Positions 1 to 5,085 of a DNA stretch of 5,085 bases are shown here, piece by piece. Location of the stretch: NCBI GenBank assembly GCA_937902565.1, contig CALFMX010000320.1, positions 1-5,085 on the forward strand. The letters are read 5' to 3'. Position numbers and translations under genes: made by a program. Below the pieces are notes generated by a model. That model was not told the DNA's origin and made no database searches. It saw only the letters and a list, made by a program, of their open reading frames with translations. The stretch's first letter is position 1; each line of letters starts with the position of its first letter. The DNA comes from an uncultured Spirochaetales bacterium (GTDB lineage: Bacteria > Spirochaetota > Spirochaetia > Sphaerochaetales > Sphaerochaetaceae).

Positions 1-878
1 CCGCCGCACAGCCCGCTCCTGCTCCTGCCACACCCGCCCCGGCCCCGGCTCCCGCTGCTCCTGCCAAGGTTGCAGTCGATGCTGACGCTGTCCTGCTCGC
101 TGCTGCCAAGGAGTACTTCCCGGCCCTCGCGACCAGCAACAACATGATCTCGGCCAAGGACCTCAAAGCCTTGCTTGATGACAACCCCGATGCACTGGTG
201 CTCGTTGACATCCGCTCTGGAGCAGACTTCGAGGCCGGGCACATCGAAGGGGCATACCATAGTGCATGGGCAGATCTGGGCGCAGTCATGGAGAAGATTC
301 CGACCAACCGCCAGGTTGTCATCGTCTGCTACTCCGGACAGACTGCCAGCCAGGCAGGAGGCGCCCTCCGCCTCGCTGGCTTCTCGAACGTCAAGATCCT
401 CACCGGTGGCATGAACGGCTGGAAGAGCGCAGGCTTCGAAGCTGCCGAGACCGGGGCGCGGCCCATGTCCAGCCGCAGCAACGTCTCCTCTCCGAAGGGT
501 GATGAACAGCAGGTCCTCTGGGATGCAGCGAAGGCGTACTTCAAGTCGGTCGGGACCGATGGCAACAAGATGGTCACGGCACAGAACCTGTACGACGCCC
601 TTGAGACCAATCCCAGGGCCTTCAAGGTCATCGACATCCGTGGCGAGAGCGACTTTGCCGAAGGGCACATCCAAGGGGCGACCCACAGTGCGTGGGCACA
701 GTTTGCCTCGGTCATCCCCTCCCTCTCCAAGAGTGAGAAGATCCTCATCGCCTGCTTCTCCGGCCAGACCTCTGGTCAGACCGTCGGCGTGCTGCGTGCG
801 ATGGGCTACGATGCCTACTCCCTGCAGGGTGGCATGAACAACGGCTGGAAGCCGGCCAACCTCCCGTTGGTACAGTAA
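1..878 (+). CDS. Tandem rhodanese-domain protein, 5' end outside the window
   Basis: The frame is open from base 3 to a TAA at 876-878 (291 visible residues), so the gene starts upstream. The ATG at 144 lies inside the first rhodanese domain region and is not the true start. Visible residues 1-22 are a Pro/Ala-rich linker, often found between an N-terminal export signal or lipid anchor and a periplasmic domain; that location is inferred because the N-terminus is missing. Two homologous rhodanese domains follow, at about residues 30-145 and 175-291. Each has an AK-x-YF lead-in, a VDIR or IDIR motif, GHI-x-GA-x-HSAWA, and the active loop C-[YF]-SGQT with Cys at residues 109 (codon 327-329) and 251 (codon 753-755), then GGMN-GWK. 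Rhodaneses transfer sulfane sulfur through a Cys persulfide, and some can carry selenium. Substrate and physiological role are unknown. Domain assignment is secure. Confidence 0.9.
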   Translation, partial: AAQPAPAPATPAPAPAPAAPAKVAVDADAVLLAAAKEYFPALATSNNMISAKDLKALLDDNPDALVLVDIRSGADFEAGHIEGAYHSAWADLGAVMEKIPTNRQVVIVCYSGQTASQAGGALRLAGFSNVKILTGGMNGWKSAGFEAAETGARPMSSRSNVSSPKGDEQQVLWDAAKAYFKSVGTDGNKMVTAQNLYDALETNPRAFKVIDIRGESDFAEGHIQGATHSAWAQFASVIPSLSKSEKILIACFSGQTSGQTVGVLRAMGYDAYSLQGGMNNGWKPANLPLVQ

Positions 879-1010: not shown

Positions 1011-2348
1011 ATGAACGAGTTATATGCCTCTCTTCCACAAGTCGAGACTCTCTTACAACAGGACCGCATCGAGGTGTGGTTCAGCCGGATCAGCCGGCCG
1101 GTTGCCGTTGATGTGGTACGGGAGACCCTGCAGCTCTTTCGCTCCCGTATCGAGAGTGAGCAGCGTGCATTCTCTCCAGAGGAGATCATCGAGGAGTGCG
1201 TAGCCGCCCTTGATGCCGTCTACCAACGCCGGCTCAAGCCTGTGATCAACTGCACCGGTGTGATCATCCACACCAACCTCGGCCGCGCCCCCCTCAGTGC
1301 CAAAAGCTGGCAGGAGGCAGGGCGGTTGAACACCTCCTACACCAACCTCGAGTTCGACCTCTCATCGGGCAAGCGGGGGAAGCGCTCCTCCTTCACCACC
1401 GAGCTCCTTTCGCGGCTGTGCGGCAGCGAGAGCGCCCTGGTGGTCAACAACAACGCCGCGGCCGTCTTCCTGATCCTCTCCACCTTCGCTCGGCGCAAGG
1501 AGGTGATCGTCAGCCGCTCCGAGCTGGTCCAGATCGGCGGTGGCTTCCGTATCCCCGACATCCTCGCCTCCTCCGGGGCCAAGCTCGTCGAGGTGGGGAC
1601 CACCAACATCACCACCATCGACGACTACCTGGAGGCGATCACCGACCGTACGGCAGTGGTACTCAAGGTCCACCGCTCCAACTTCGCCCTGCGCGGCTTC
1701 ACCGAAGAGCCCTCGACCCGCACACTGGCGGCCCATCTGCCGCCCAACATCCTGCTCGTCGTCGACCAGGGGTCGGGGGTGCTCTCAAGCGACATCAAGG
1801 GGGAGACGCCGGTGAGCTCCCATATACGGGATGGGGCCCACCTCGTCTCCTTCTCTGCCGACAAGGCCCTCGGCTCGGTGCAGGGGGGTTGCATCGTCGG
1901 CAACGGAGACCTGGTTGCAAAACTTGCCACGCATCCGCTCTATCGCACCATGAGGGTCGGAAAGACAGTCTCATCCCTGCTCGAGGCCTCCCTGATCGAC
2001 CACCTCAACGGCGTGGGGACCCCTGCCCTCGCCTTTGCCCGACGCAGCGTCGAAGAGCTTGCGGCCATCGGGCACACCATCCTTGGCGCGGTGGCAAGCA
2101 GCCGCCTCTCCCTGGTCGAGGAGACCATGACCCTCGGTGGTGGCAGCACCCCCGACGAGTCCCTTCCCTCCCTCGCCATCCGCCTCGCCTCAGCCAAGCC
2201 GAACAGGGACGCCCAGGTTCTCAGAAGCCGCGAGGTGCCCATCATCACGACCGTCGTCAAGGGGGCCATCCACCTCAACCTCGGTGCCCTTGCCCCCGAG
2301 GAGGCCGGCACGGTCATCTCTGCCCTCAAGGACCTGCTGGAGGCGTAG
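1011..2348 (+). CDS. selA: L-seryl-tRNA(Sec) selenium transferase (selenocysteine synthase)
   Basis: Encodes 445 residues, close to the roughly 460 of E. coli SelA. This cytoplasmic PLP enzyme converts Ser-tRNA(Sec) to Sec-tRNA(Sec) using selenophosphate. The N-terminus LYASLPQVETLL matches the tRNA-binding domain start of the family (LYSQLPAIDRLL in E. coli). Further matches are RPVINCTG-like KPVINCTGVIIHTNLGRAPLS ending near residue 96, NNNAAA (146-151), IGGGFRIPD, VEVGTTN, KVHRSNF and VSFSADKALGSVQGG, whose Lys285 (codon 1863-1865) is the expected PLP Schiff-base lysine. The ATG at 1011 is chosen because homology begins there; the in-frame GTG at 936 would place the start inside the tRNA gene. 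No Shine-Dalgarno sequence precedes the ATG, and upstream bases belong to selC. The TAG stop lies two bases before selB, so the two are translationally adjacent. Confidence 0.95.
   Translation: MNELYASLPQVETLLQQDRIEVWFSRISRPVAVDVVRETLQLFRSRIESEQRAFSPEEIIEECVAALDAVYQRRLKPVINCTGVIIHTNLGRAPLSAKSWQEAGRLNTSYTNLEFDLSSGKRGKRSSFTTELLSRLCGSESALVVNNNAAAVFLILSTFARRKEVIVSRSELVQIGGGFRIPDILASSGAKLVEVGTTNITTIDDYLEAITDRTAVVLKVHRSNFALRGFTEEPSTRTLAAHLPPNILLVVDQGSGVLSSDIKGETPVSSHIRDGAHLVSFSADKALGSVQGGCIVGNGDLVAKLATHPLYRTMRVGKTVSSLLEASLIDHLNGVGTPALAFARRSVEELAAIGHTILGAVASSRLSLVEETMTLGGGSTPDESLPSLAIRLASAKPNRDAQVLRSREVPIITTVVKGAIHLNLGALAPEEAGTVISALKDLLEA
2339..2343 (+). promoter_or_regulatory. Ribosome binding site of selB
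   Basis: GGAGG lies inside the last codons of selA, seven bases before the GTG at 2351. It fixes the selB start, because the frame runs open far upstream as a shadow of selA. SelA and SelB synthesis is probably coupled. Confidence 0.8.
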
Positions 2349-2350
2349 TT

Positions 2351-4159
2351 GTGTACATCATCGGGACAGCCGGCCATGTGGACCATGGCAAATCATCGCT
2401 GGTAGAGGCGCTCACCGGCAGCAACCCCGACCGCCTCCCCCAGGAGAAGGAGCGGTCGCTGACCATCGTCCTCGGCTTTGCCTCCTATACCAACGCCCGG
2501 AACCAACGGATCGGCATCATCGACGTACCGGGCCATGAACGCTTCATCCGCAATATGGTCAGCGGCATCTGGTCACTGGACCTGGCCCTGCTCATCGTCG
2601 CCGCCGATGACGGGTGGATGGAGCAGACCGAGGACCACGCCGCCATCCTCAAGGCGATGGGGGTCACAGAGATCATCGTTGTCATCACCAAGGCGGACCT
2701 CGTCGATGTAGGGCGCCTGGCCACCGTAACAGAGGAGGTCGCTCTCCACTTCGAGGCGATCTTTGACCGGAGGCCGCCGGTGGTGGTCACCAGTGCCCCG
2801 AGTGGACTCGGCATCGAAGCGCTCAAGAGGGCAGTCGATGCCACGCTTGCCCAAAGACTGGAGCACCCCTTTCCCCCCGCCCTCTGCATCGACCGCTCCT
2901 TCATCATCGACGGCATCGGGGCGGTGGCCACCGGCTCGCTGAGGGGGCAAACCCTGCAAGTAGGTGAGCAGGTCACCCTCCTCCCCTCCGGAGTGAAGGC
3001 CAAGGTCAGGACAATCCAATGCTACGGGGAGGCGGCACAGAGGGCGGGCGACGGCACCCGTGTCGCCCTCTCCCTGCAGGGCATCACCAAGGAGCAGCTT
3101 CCCACGGGGGAGGTGATCACCACCACCCCCTCCTTCTACCGTACAAGCCGGCGTGTACACCTCCTGGTCACACCGATTCGCACTGGCGAGCGCCTGAAGC
3201 TCAAACGGGTCGGCGAGGTGGAGATCGCCAGTGCGACCTGGCACGACTGGGCAACAATGCACATCACCGGAGATCGTGAGGGGGAGACGCTGCTCGCTAC
3301 CCTCACACTGGAGGAGGTGAGACCCTGGTACAGCGGAGAGAGCGTGGTCTTGATCAGAAACGGCTCCTCCAAGGTCCTGGCCAAGGGGACGGTCATCACC
3401 GCCGCAGAGCTGGAAAAGGGCGGGCTGAGGAGCCTCGCCGCAATCGTGGCACGGTGCAATGGCCTCCCCCCATCCCTTGCCACCGAGGCGGATCTCTTCC
3501 TCCACCTCAATGGGTACGGCAAGAGTGCAGATCACGGAGCTGTCCGCATGATCGAGGGGGAGACGTTCATCCGTCTCGGGCCGTGGTACCTCAAACAGTC
3601 ACAGCTTGAGGCGTGCGCACAGAAGCTGGCCAGCGACCTTGATGTGCGCCACTCACTCCCGCTCCAGACCTTCAAGCAGGAGAGCGGACTGCCGCTCGAG
3701 TTGGCAGAGCTGGTTGCCTACCACCTCGTGGAGGGGAAGCAGGCTCGCCTCGTTGGGGCGAACCTCGAGGCAGCGGTCCAGCAATCGGCGCTGAGCGCCG
3801 ATGAGGAGGCGCTGCTCAAGAAGATCGAGGGGCAGGGATTTGAGGGGTCTCCGGTGAAGTGGATCGCAAAGGAGGAGCGGACCACTATCACCTCACTGCG
3901 ACAAAAGCAGGAGATCCTCATCGTGGAGGGGAGCTTCGTCTACAGTGAGCGGACCTTTGCCGAGATCGTCTCCCGGATCCTCAAAGGCAAGGCGGTGGGC
4001 ACTACCTTCACCATCGCCGATGCGAGGCAGCACCTCGACCTCAGCCGCAAATACATGATCCCGCTACTCAATACCCTCGAAGATCGAGGCTACGTGCAGA
4101 GAATGGGCGATGTACGCCGGGTTTTGGCCCTGCCGGGGGAGAAAGGGCGCACATTATAG
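2351..4159 (+). CDS. selB: Selenocysteine-specific elongation factor SelB
   Basis: Encodes 602 residues from a GTG start, near the 614 of E. coli SelB. SelB is a GTPase that delivers Sec-tRNA(Sec) to UGA codons carrying a SECIS hairpin. G motifs: GHVDHGKS (8-15), switch I with T38, DVPGHE (58-63), TKAD (113-116), TSAPSG (147-152). EF-Tu-like beta-barrel domains follow at about 175-380, including DRSFIIDGIGAVATGSL. The C-terminal third is the winged-helix array that binds SECIS RNA; its last helix-turn-helix carries DLSRKYMIPLL and GDVRRVL, close to the family signature. Start chosen by homology (VYIIGTAGHVDHGK against MIIATAGHVDHGK) and the GGAGG at 2339-2343. Upstream in-frame sequence back to 1418 is selA read in another frame. 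Oddity: switch I reads RSLTIVLGF where the family usually has RG-x-TI-[D/E]-LGF. TAG stop. Confidence 0.96.
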   Translation: MYIIGTAGHVDHGKSSLVEALTGSNPDRLPQEKERSLTIVLGFASYTNARNQRIGIIDVPGHERFIRNMVSGIWSLDLALLIVAADDGWMEQTEDHAAILKAMGVTEIIVVITKADLVDVGRLATVTEEVALHFEAIFDRRPPVVVTSAPSGLGIEALKRAVDATLAQRLEHPFPPALCIDRSFIIDGIGAVATGSLRGQTLQVGEQVTLLPSGVKAKVRTIQCYGEAAQRAGDGTRVALSLQGITKEQLPTGEVITTTPSFYRTSRRVHLLVTPIRTGERLKLKRVGEVEIASATWHDWATMHITGDREGETLLATLTLEEVRPWYSGESVVLIRNGSSKVLAKGTVITAAELEKGGLRSLAAIVARCNGLPPSLATEADLFLHLNGYGKSADHGAVRMIEGETFIRLGPWYLKQSQLEACAQKLASDLDVRHSLPLQTFKQESGLPLELAELVAYHLVEGKQARLVGANLEAAVQQSALSADEEALLKKIEGQGFEGSPVKWIAKEERTTITSLRQKQEILIVEGSFVYSERTFAEIVSRILKGKAVGTTFTIADARQHLDLSRKYMIPLLNTLEDRGYVQRMGDVRRVLALPGEKGRTL

Positions 4160-4224: not shown

Positions 4225-5085
4225 ATGATGGGAAAAAAACGACTGAGACTGTCCCGCCTAGGCTTGCTCGCACTCAGTGCGCTCTTGCTTGTCGTTGGGG
4301 TTGGATGCAAGAAGAAGGAAGTTGAAGAGGCGCCACAAATCACGGCGCGGTTCACCAACCCGGTTGCCATCGAATCACAGCCAAGCAGCAAGTGTATCGC
4401 CTGTCACACCCAGGTCGGTCCGATCAACAACCTCGCTACCCCTGTCACTGCAGCAGCAGAGACAGGAGGGTGAGCCCCTGCTGCGCCGGAGTTTTCGGCG
4501 CTTGAAAAATTCCTGGTTTCCACTGAGTTCTTGTCCACCGCCCACGGTCAGCTGGGCTGTGTAACCTGTCATGGCGGCAATGGTAATGAGGGTCGTTTCA
4601 CACACGCCCACATCGGGGTCAATCCCGCACCGTCCGCCGATCCTGCTGGAATCTGTGCCCAATGTCACCTGGAGGCCACTGAGACCTATGCCAAGTCGCT
4701 GCACTACTCGGTGCGGGGCTTTGCCAACTCCCTCATTGACTTTGCCGGTGATCCCAATGCCCTTGACGACATACACAAGGGACTCGGGGAGGTCTTCAAC
4801 CTCAACTGCATGAACTGTCACGCCACCTGTGGAGAGTGTCACGTCAGCCGTCCGGACAGCTATGCCGGTGGCCTGATCGACCAGCACCGCTTCTTCAGCC
4901 CCCCGCCGATGGACCAGACCTGCTACGCATGTCACGGTGCACGCAATGCCGGAGAGTTCATGGGAACGGTCGGGTTTACCAAGGACGTCCACTACGAGAT
5001 GGGCTTCACCTGTGTTGACTGTCACGACGTGAGCAACTTCCACGGCACCGGGGCCGAGTTCGACTCGATGTGGGACAAGAGCACC
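4225..5085 (+). CDS. Selenocysteine-containing multiheme cytochrome c lipoprotein, 3' end outside the window
   Basis: 287 codons are visible and the frame is open at the window end. Residues 1-27 form a signal peptide (KKRLRLSR, then a Leu-rich core) ending at VGVGC, which fits a permissive lipobox with lipidated Cys28. Seven CxxCH heme c motifs follow: CIACH (4393-4407), CVTCH (4558-4572), CAQCH (4654-4668), CMNCH (4807-4821), CGECH (4828-4842), CYACH (4921-4935) and CVDCH (5011-5025). An in-frame TGA at 4471-4473 (codon 83) falls between hemes 1 and 2. It is read here as Sec because the downstream part has no start or signal peptide, a SECIS-like hairpin follows, and selC, selA and selB lie directly upstream. 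The protein is probably an envelope electron carrier; partners and substrate are unknown. The start may be 4228. Alternatives are a nonsense-mutated pseudogene or a sequence error. The cytochrome call is secure; the Sec call is strong but inferred. Confidence 0.85.
4471..4473 (+). other. In-frame UGA, predicted selenocysteine codon (Sec83)
   Basis: Local context is AETGG-U-APAAPEF, a small-residue and Pro-rich linker. There is no neighbouring Cys, so it is not a CxxU or UxxC redox pair; the nearest cysteines are heme ligands at residues 60 and 112. The codon would be read by the UCA-anticodon tRNA at 918-1006. Confidence 0.83.
4483..4501 (+). promoter_or_regulatory. Bacterial SECIS element (hairpin)
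   Basis: GCGCCG at 4483-4488 pairs perfectly with CGGCGC at 4496-4501, extended by a G-U pair 4489/4495, closing the five-base loop AGUUU. The loop starts after 16 intervening bases from the UGA. Bacterial SECIS hairpins lie in the coding region just downstream of UGA, with a loop roughly 16 to 37 bases away and a G in the first two loop positions; both hold here. SelB's last winged-helix domain would bind it. There is no T run after it, which argues against a terminator. Confidence 0.8.

What the first reader, a model, noticed from the sequence alone, without database searches (positions are those of the whole stretch)
4225..5085. A selenocysteine-containing multiheme cytochrome c, hidden by an in-frame TGA
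Seen: one signal-peptide-bearing frame with a CxxCH motif runs into TGA at 4471, and the same frame continues for 204 codons with six more CxxCH motifs to the window end. The downstream part has no in-frame ATG before 4810 and no export signal, so it could not mature as a cytochrome alone. Known: selC, selA and selB, directly upstream, decode UGA as Sec when a SECIS hairpin follows. Inferred: this is one selenoprotein. Heme c multiheme cytochromes are not among the classical selenoprotein families I know (formate dehydrogenase, glycine reductase, SelD, Prx-like, HesB-like), so it may be new or little described. A standard gene caller would report an 82-residue stub and miss the rest.
Basis: partly seen in the sequence, partly recalled or inferred. 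Interest (0 to 1): 0.95.

Follow-up and report, generated by a model that had tools for sequence, protein, structure and literature searches.

The report
Selenocysteine cytochrome beside its own decoder
In spirochaete-group bacteria, a stop codon that sits inside the gene for an electron-carrying multiheme cytochrome, at the same codon in all 20 genomes in which the gene was found, is likely read as the rare amino acid selenocysteine by genes that often lie nearby, so most database entries looked at here hold only the part after that codon.

Summary
The read-through frame at 4225-5085 carries 7 CxxCH motifs, one before and six after the TGA at 4471. The gene runs off the contig; full-length relatives carry 11. 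The organism is Sphaerochaeta-like (Spirochaetota), not a deltaproteobacterium. The in-frame TGA is at the same codon in 20 of 20 genomes found. A bacterial-SECIS-like hairpin follows it, with compensatory changes between lineages and frozen synonymous codons. selA/selB lie in the same stretch in 12 of 20 loci, cytochrome c maturation genes (ResB/CcsB) in 17, a periplasmic rhodanese gene in 15. In a 392-genome sample, 12 of 12 cytochrome carriers have SelA against 91 of 392 overall. One database homologue has Cys at the site; three others spanning it do not. Sec multiheme cytochromes have precedents (ExtKL; a TIGR04315 octaheme), but the members tested match neither model and no NCBIfam equivalog. 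I call it a new variant of a known kind: an 11-heme selenocytochrome, often in a cassette with Sec machinery and a rhodanese partner. Its reaction (most likely extracytoplasmic chalcogen reduction) is inference. No experiment here shows Sec.

The parts
3..878 (+). Two-domain rhodanese, 5' end cut by the contig; full-length relative in L008 looks like a lipoprotein (by eye)
   Evidence: PF00581, E 2e-32, 2 stretches; same gene heads the cassette in L008, L010, L023
918..1005 (+). selC, tRNA-Sec (UCA anticodon)
   Evidence: RF01852 68.6 bits; ARAGORN
1011..2348 (+). selA, L-seryl-tRNA(Sec) selenium transferase
   Evidence: TIGR00474 453 bits, cut-off 267.9
2351..4159 (+). selB, Sec-specific elongation factor
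   Evidence: TIGR00475 271.2 bits, cut-off 242.25
4225..5085 (+). First 287 residues of the predicted Sec-containing multiheme cytochrome c; the C-terminal part is on G000:C112:1-477 (L034)
   Evidence: full-length relatives about 400-460 aa with 11 CxxCH
4225..4308 (+). Signal peptide with lipoprotein-like Cys at residue 28 (read from sequence by eye, no predictor run)
   Evidence: sequence; Cys also in L006-L010 and L012, absent for example in L017
4393..4407 (+). CxxCH heme motif 1 (CIACH)
4471..4473 (+). In-frame TGA, predicted Sec codon (residue 83)
   Evidence: TGA at this codon in 20 of 20 genomes; Cys in P0137
4483..4501 (+). Predicted bacterial SECIS hairpin: 8-bp stem, loop GUU, 17 nt from UGA
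4558..4572 (+). CxxCH (CVTCH)
4654..4668 (+). CxxCH (CAQCH)
4807..4821 (+). CxxCH (CMNCH)
4828..4842 (+). CxxCH (CGECH)
4921..4935 (+). CxxCH (CYACH)
5011..5025 (+). CxxCH (CVDCH)

Best explanation
Window 4225-5085 encodes the first 287 residues of what is likely one exported multiheme c-type cytochrome (11 CxxCH motifs in its full-length relatives), whose in-frame TGA at 4471 is predicted to be read as selenocysteine by the selC-selA-selB genes directly upstream. The hairpin at 4483-4501 would recruit SelB; the protein would be exported, and hemes attached by the ResB/CcsB (system II) genes that follow the cytochrome. Inferred function (about 0.35): the Sec, in a flexible linker between heme motifs 1 and 2, handles a chalcogen substrate (sulfane sulfur or selenite) together with the periplasmic rhodanese, and the heme chain passes the electrons, so the cassette works as an extracytoplasmic chalcogen reductase. 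Shown: reading frame, conservation of the TGA, gene order, co-occurrence. Inferred: Sec insertion, export, heme ligation, reaction. The confidence given is for Sec decoding, not for the reaction.
For: TGA at the same codon in 20 of 20 genomes, 0 TAA/TAG/sense. A hairpin within the published bacterial SECIS limits (PMC13188914 section 5) after the TGA in 17 of 17 loci folded; 48-nt MFE -8.7 to -17.6. In registers chosen after seeing the sequences, the stem is 8/8 paired in L013 with four two-sided changes against the Sphaerochaetaceae-like stem, and the eight f26/f30/f32 loci counted have a third stem, 7/7 paired; 0-9 of 731-1049 shifted positions of the same gene pair as well. Synonymous codons identical in 4 of 6 hairpin codons against 12 of 219 outside codons +4 to +14, Fisher 2.4e-4. 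SelA over cut-off in 12 of 12 cytochrome genomes against 91 of 392 overall, hypergeometric 1.4e-8. selA/selB in the same stretch in 12 of 20 loci, rhodanese 15, ResB/CcsB 17. selD in 15 of 15 cytochrome genomes tested, though it is common anyway (32 of 60 relatives). P0137 has Cys at the site. P0100 and P0107 carry rhodanese domains.
Against: No protein data. Of the 4 fetched database proteins that span the site, only P0137 has Cys: P0014 has Trp, P0062 Leu, and P0059 Ala or (shifted by two) Trp, in a poorly alignable stretch. 8 of 20 loci (L007, L009, L024-L027, L052, L053) show no selA/selB in the stretch held; L007 and L052 are short contigs, but in G143, G369, G296 and G375 SelA lies on another contig. 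G375 and G474 show no rhodanese. G044 and G296 show no ResB/CcsB, and G143 only a weak CcsB-like match about 7 kb away. In 6 of 17 loci (L014, L016, L018-L021) the hairpin MFE is unremarkable for the gene: 76-193 codons score lower. Residues 84-88 of the L008 model, just before its Sec 90, have pLDDT under 50, so no defined active site is predicted. The SelA test is not corrected for shared ancestry. Function rests on neighbours only.
Confidence: 0.9

Rival explanations
1. TGA 4471 is a true stop: an 82-residue one-heme lipoprotein is made and the downstream part is a separate protein from an internal start, or the gene is decaying.
For: Gene callers treat it so in 134 of 138 fetched database proteins.
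Against: Always TGA in 20 genomes, never TAA/TAG; downstream frame intact with 10 further heme motifs in full-length loci; no export signal seen by eye at its start; hairpin and frozen codons after it; Sec genes co-occur.
Confidence: 0.03
2. The UGA is read through as another residue (for example Trp) without Sec.
For: P0014 has Trp at the site; whether its DNA reads TGG, or TGA under another code, is unknown.
Against: selA/selB nearby in 12 of 20 loci, SelA in 12 of 12 carriers, SECIS-like covarying hairpin, Cys in P0137.
Confidence: 0.04
3. Functional rival: the Sec cytochrome is an electron conduit or metal (Fe, Se or Te oxyanion) reductase of the Geobacter Ext type, and the rhodanese only processes by-products or serves selenium supply.
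For: ExtKL is a predicted 5-heme selenocytochrome in a cluster with rhodanese ExtH linked to selenite/tellurite reduction (PMC5877670, passages); weak matches to ExtM/ExtN and DmsE models; weak structural resemblance to OcwA, HAO and MccA.
Against: Model scores are far below cut-offs. No second multiheme frame of 90 aa or more lies in the five neighbourhoods listed (L024, L026-L028, L033), unlike the ext cluster; the other loci were not checked for this, and porin and cytochrome b/Rieske genes were not searched for.
Confidence: 0.3

Closest known systems
ExtKL, Sec-containing multiheme cytochrome of the Geobacter ext cluster (NF040886)
   Same: c-type cytochrome predicted to contain Sec, encoded in a cluster with a rhodanese gene (PMC5877670, passages; PMC13188914, table part).
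   Different: 5 hemes against 11; NF040886 not reported at E up to 10 for three members; the ext cluster has a porin and other cytochromes, while this cassette often carries selABC and ResB/CcsB.
Tetrathionate reductase family octaheme cytochrome, Sec form (TIGR04315)
   Same: Multiheme cytochrome listed with Sec in the 2026 catalogue (PMC13188914, passage).
   Different: 8 hemes by its name; TIGR04315 not reported for three members at E up to 10.
Dethiobacter alkaliphilus rhodanese-linked multiheme DealDRAFT_1917 / OMD50_RS07060
   Same: Multiheme next to rhodanese genes; the search returned a Dethiobacter homologue (P0030) that starts after the TGA site.
   Different: Discussed as an octaheme of SirA/Otr kinship; 'seleno' occurs nowhere in the main text (PMC10376724, passages and section 23). 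Its identity with P0030 was not tested.
Octaheme HAO / MccA / OcwA fold group
   Different: Weak similarity only, extra hemes, Sec linker.

Membership tests
Bacterial selenoproteins (UGA-decoded Sec) | In-frame UGA conserved at one site across species | tested here: met
   20 of 20 genomes
Bacterial selenoproteins (UGA-decoded Sec) | bSECIS hairpin: loop 16-37 nt from UGA, G early in loop, MFE <= -7.5 | tested here: met
   17 of 17 loci folded; limits from PMC13188914; MFE not exceptional within the gene in 6 of 17
Bacterial selenoproteins (UGA-decoded Sec) | Sec machinery in the genome | tested here: met
   selC, selA, selB in window; selD at G000:C321; SelA in 12 of 12 carriers
Bacterial selenoproteins (UGA-decoded Sec) | Cys homologues at the Sec site | tested here: inconclusive
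   1 Cys (P0137) among 4 fetched proteins that span the site; the others Trp, Leu, and Ala or Trp
Bacterial selenoproteins (UGA-decoded Sec) | Selenium found in the protein | not testable with these tools
   needs 75Se label or mass spectrometry
ExtKL (NF040886) | Match to the curated model | tested here: not met
   not listed for L008, L013, L017 at E up to 10 (HMMER's filters drop most matches above about 0.1)
ExtKL (NF040886) | Five hemes | tested here: not met
   11 CxxCH in full-length loci; five from PMC5877670
Octaheme tetrathionate reductase family (TIGR04315) | Match to the curated model | tested here: not met
   not listed for L008, L013, L017 at E up to 10 (same filter caveat)
DmsE/MtrA decaheme (TIGR03508) | Score over cut-off 192.2 | tested here: not met
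   47.5 bits (L006) and 52.6 bits (L008)
HAO / MccA / OcwA octaheme fold group | Shared fold and heme arrangement | tested here: inconclusive

The most novel reading that the evidence does not exclude
A self-contained respiratory cassette in which the Sec decoding set (selCAB, in some genomes also selD), a heme ligation pair and a periplasmic rhodanese are inherited together to make one client, an 11-heme cytochrome whose Sec takes a chalcogen from the rhodanese and is reduced by the heme chain: a selenol-heme catalytic site of which the searches named here found no description, and a Sec trait kept in Sphaerochaetaceae chiefly for this enzyme.
Probability: 0.3. Interest if true: 0.87.

Novelty: new variant of a known kind. 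Interest (0 to 1): 0.72.

Why it matters
It adds a predicted selenoprotein family that gene calling splits in two: 134 of 138 fetched database relatives, including entries labelled Dethiobacter, Gudongella, Tindallia and Desulfitibacter, start after the Sec site. If true, it places selenium chemistry beside a long heme wire and links a translation trait to one respiratory gene, which makes the question of why a lineage keeps Sec directly testable.

Tried and rejected
A viral-contig scan with alignment A2 found no relative. tblastn against plasmids found none. The third protein search (P0137 residues 30-130) returned only itself, so Cys and sense variants stay few. Foldseek against the PDB gave nothing at E <= 0.001. 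SelD as a marker was rejected because it is common without the cytochrome. Weak RF01852 matches are probably ordinary tRNAs: 59 of 60 genomes match at E <= 0.001, 11 of 60 over the gathering score, 9 of them above 60 bits. MAFFT put L013 out of register in the hairpin, so pairs were counted without gaps in a script. A GrdB search rang nowhere, controls included, and says nothing. I did not reach the DNA of the Bacillota homologues; that they too carry TGA is inference from their truncated starts. Axial ligands: 11 CxxCH but only 9 non-motif histidines invariant in the 15 Sec loci aligned, with a tenth (H380 of L008) nearly invariant in the 63-row alignment; whether Sec sits at the odd heme could not be tested because I had no model coordinates.

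Full report
Observation. The window is a whole 5085-base contig (G000:C320) holding, all on the + strand, a rhodanese gene cut at its start, tRNA-Sec, selA, selB and the start of a multiheme cytochrome. The cytochrome frame meets TGA at 4471 after 82 codons and goes on for 204 more to the contig end, with one CxxCH before and six after. The rest of the gene opens contig C112 of the same bin, followed by ResB and CcsB genes. The cassette is therefore probably whole in this organism, though two contigs are not proof of adjacency.

Kinship. The five named relatives from genome contigs are Sphaerochaeta, Sphaerochaetaceae, Spirochaetales and Spirochaetia MAGs.

Conserved TGA. Searches of 60 relatives, 392 genomes of the phylum and 394 of the class, which overlap, plus genome contigs, gave 20 distinct genomes with the cytochrome (contig lengths identify L006 as G014, L007 as G022, L008 as G277, L009 as G602). 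One search also listed G032, a weak match (35% identity over 133 residues) whose frame, by eye, looks like a nitrite-reductase-type cytochrome; I did not count it. In 20 of 20 the codon is TGA, always with Gly before it and Ala or Gly after it. The 19 complete frames hold 11 CxxCH each.

Hairpin. In 17 of 17 loci folded, a stem-loop within the published bacterial SECIS limits follows the TGA (for the limits). Three kinds of stem occur beside that of L004. Against the Sphaerochaetaceae-like stem, L013 changes four pairs on both sides and keeps 8 of 8 paired; the eight f26/f30/f32 loci counted use a bulged 7-pair stem. Of seven Sphaerochaetaceae-like loci, six are 8/8 and L009 is 7/8. The registers were chosen after seeing the sequences; elsewhere in the same genes 0-9 of 731-1049 shifted positions pair as well. 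Among codons whose residue is the same in all loci present (at least six of the seven), 4 of 6 in the hairpin are identical at DNA level, against 12 of 219 outside codons +4 to +14 (Fisher 2.4e-4). By folding energy alone the site is unremarkable in L014, L016 and L018-L021, so the energy test does not carry the case in that group.

Machinery. SelA over cut-off occurs in 91 of 392 genomes of the phylum sample and in all 12 of those with the cytochrome; hypergeometric 1.4e-8, without correction for shared ancestry. The f1 (own family) genomes over the SelA cut-off in that sample are the same three that have the cytochrome (G000, G277, G309). selA or selB lies in the stretch held with the cytochrome in 12 of 20 loci (window, L006, L008, L010, L023, L028-L033, L051); in G044, G414, G223 and G355 selD is there too. 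The other eight are L007, L009, L024-L027, L052 and L053; in G143, G369, G296 and G375 SelA is on another contig. Rhodanese genes are near in 15 of 20, not found in G375 and G474, and out of sight in three cut contigs (L006, L007, L051). ResB/CcsB are near in 17 of 20, the window's own pair being counted from C112; G044 and G296 show none and G143 a weak CcsB-like match about 7 kb away. The arrangement recurs in families f1, f10, f17, f26 and f30, although the cytochromes of f26/f30/f32 are only 34-38% identical to L008.

Database view. The protein searches gave 76 and 466 (best 120 listed) hits. Of 138 proteins fetched, 134 begin after the Sec column and 4 span it: P0137 Cys, P0014 Trp, P0062 Leu, P0059 Ala, or Trp if shifted. 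Truncated entries include Dethiobacter, Gudongella, Tindallia and Desulfitibacter. Two proteins are fused to rhodanese domains (P0100, P0107).

Family. NCBIfam reports no cytochrome model over its cut-off for the members scanned; the best are ExtM and DmsE at about 50 bits against cut-offs of 800 and 192. NF040886 (ExtKL) and TIGR04315 are not reported for three members. The predicted fold (pLDDT 88) resembles HAO, OcwA and MccA only weakly.

Literature. Searches for selenocysteine or selenoprotein with multiheme or c-type cytochrome, ExtKL, Sphaerochaeta and rhodanese listed no paper whose title or abstract start describes this family. In the 2026 catalogue (PMC13188914: outline, sections 5 and 9, part 1 of 3 of section 7, and passages seen) the word cytochrome occurs three times, in the rows for ExtKL and TIGR04315; I did not read parts 2 and 3 of its section 7. 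PMC5877670 was seen as passages; PMC10376724 as passages and section 23, where a rhodanese-linked Dethiobacter multiheme is discussed without Sec; PMC9312934 and PMC12545173 as passages. Most subscription journals are not searchable here.

Function. Rhodanese neighbours and fusions, system II heme ligation genes and the Ext precedent make extracytoplasmic reduction of sulfane sulfur or selenium oxyanions the most likely role (about 0.35, with Sec acting on the chalcogen). This is inference. Against a sulfur-only role, the Dethiobacter strain that cannot reduce sulfur also has the rhodanese-linked multiheme (PMC10376724), if that is the same family.

Verdict. Supported as a selenoprotein (about 0.9); a new variant of a known kind.

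Noticed in passing
G000:C207:1378-3225 (L054): Formate-dehydrogenase-like frame with an in-frame TGA (RVUHGPT), below the TIGR01591 cut-off, in the same bin; it may be a second selenoprotein or a foreign contig, as the 5 other f1 genomes searched beside it (G014, G022, G277, G309, G602) have no match.
   Followed up: partly
G011 and G024 (same genus): tRNA-Sec at about 65 bits but no cytochrome and no SelD over the cut-off.
   Followed up: no
P0100, P0107: Homologues fused to rhodanese domains, which also start after the Sec site.
   Followed up: partly
L008:642-1532 and L010:601-1425: A divergent aldo/keto-reductase-like gene (label recalled, not scanned) heads the cassette in both; the two are 62% identical.
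   Followed up: no
L010:10904-11752: Reverse-transcriptase-like frame (group II intron type by eye, not scanned) near the cassette.
   Followed up: no
G043, G044, G058, G143, G223, G355, G367, G369, G388, G414: SelD frames that themselves carry one in-frame TGA, so these genomes may make Sec-SelD; SelD of G000, G014, G022, G277 and G309 shows none.
   Followed up: no
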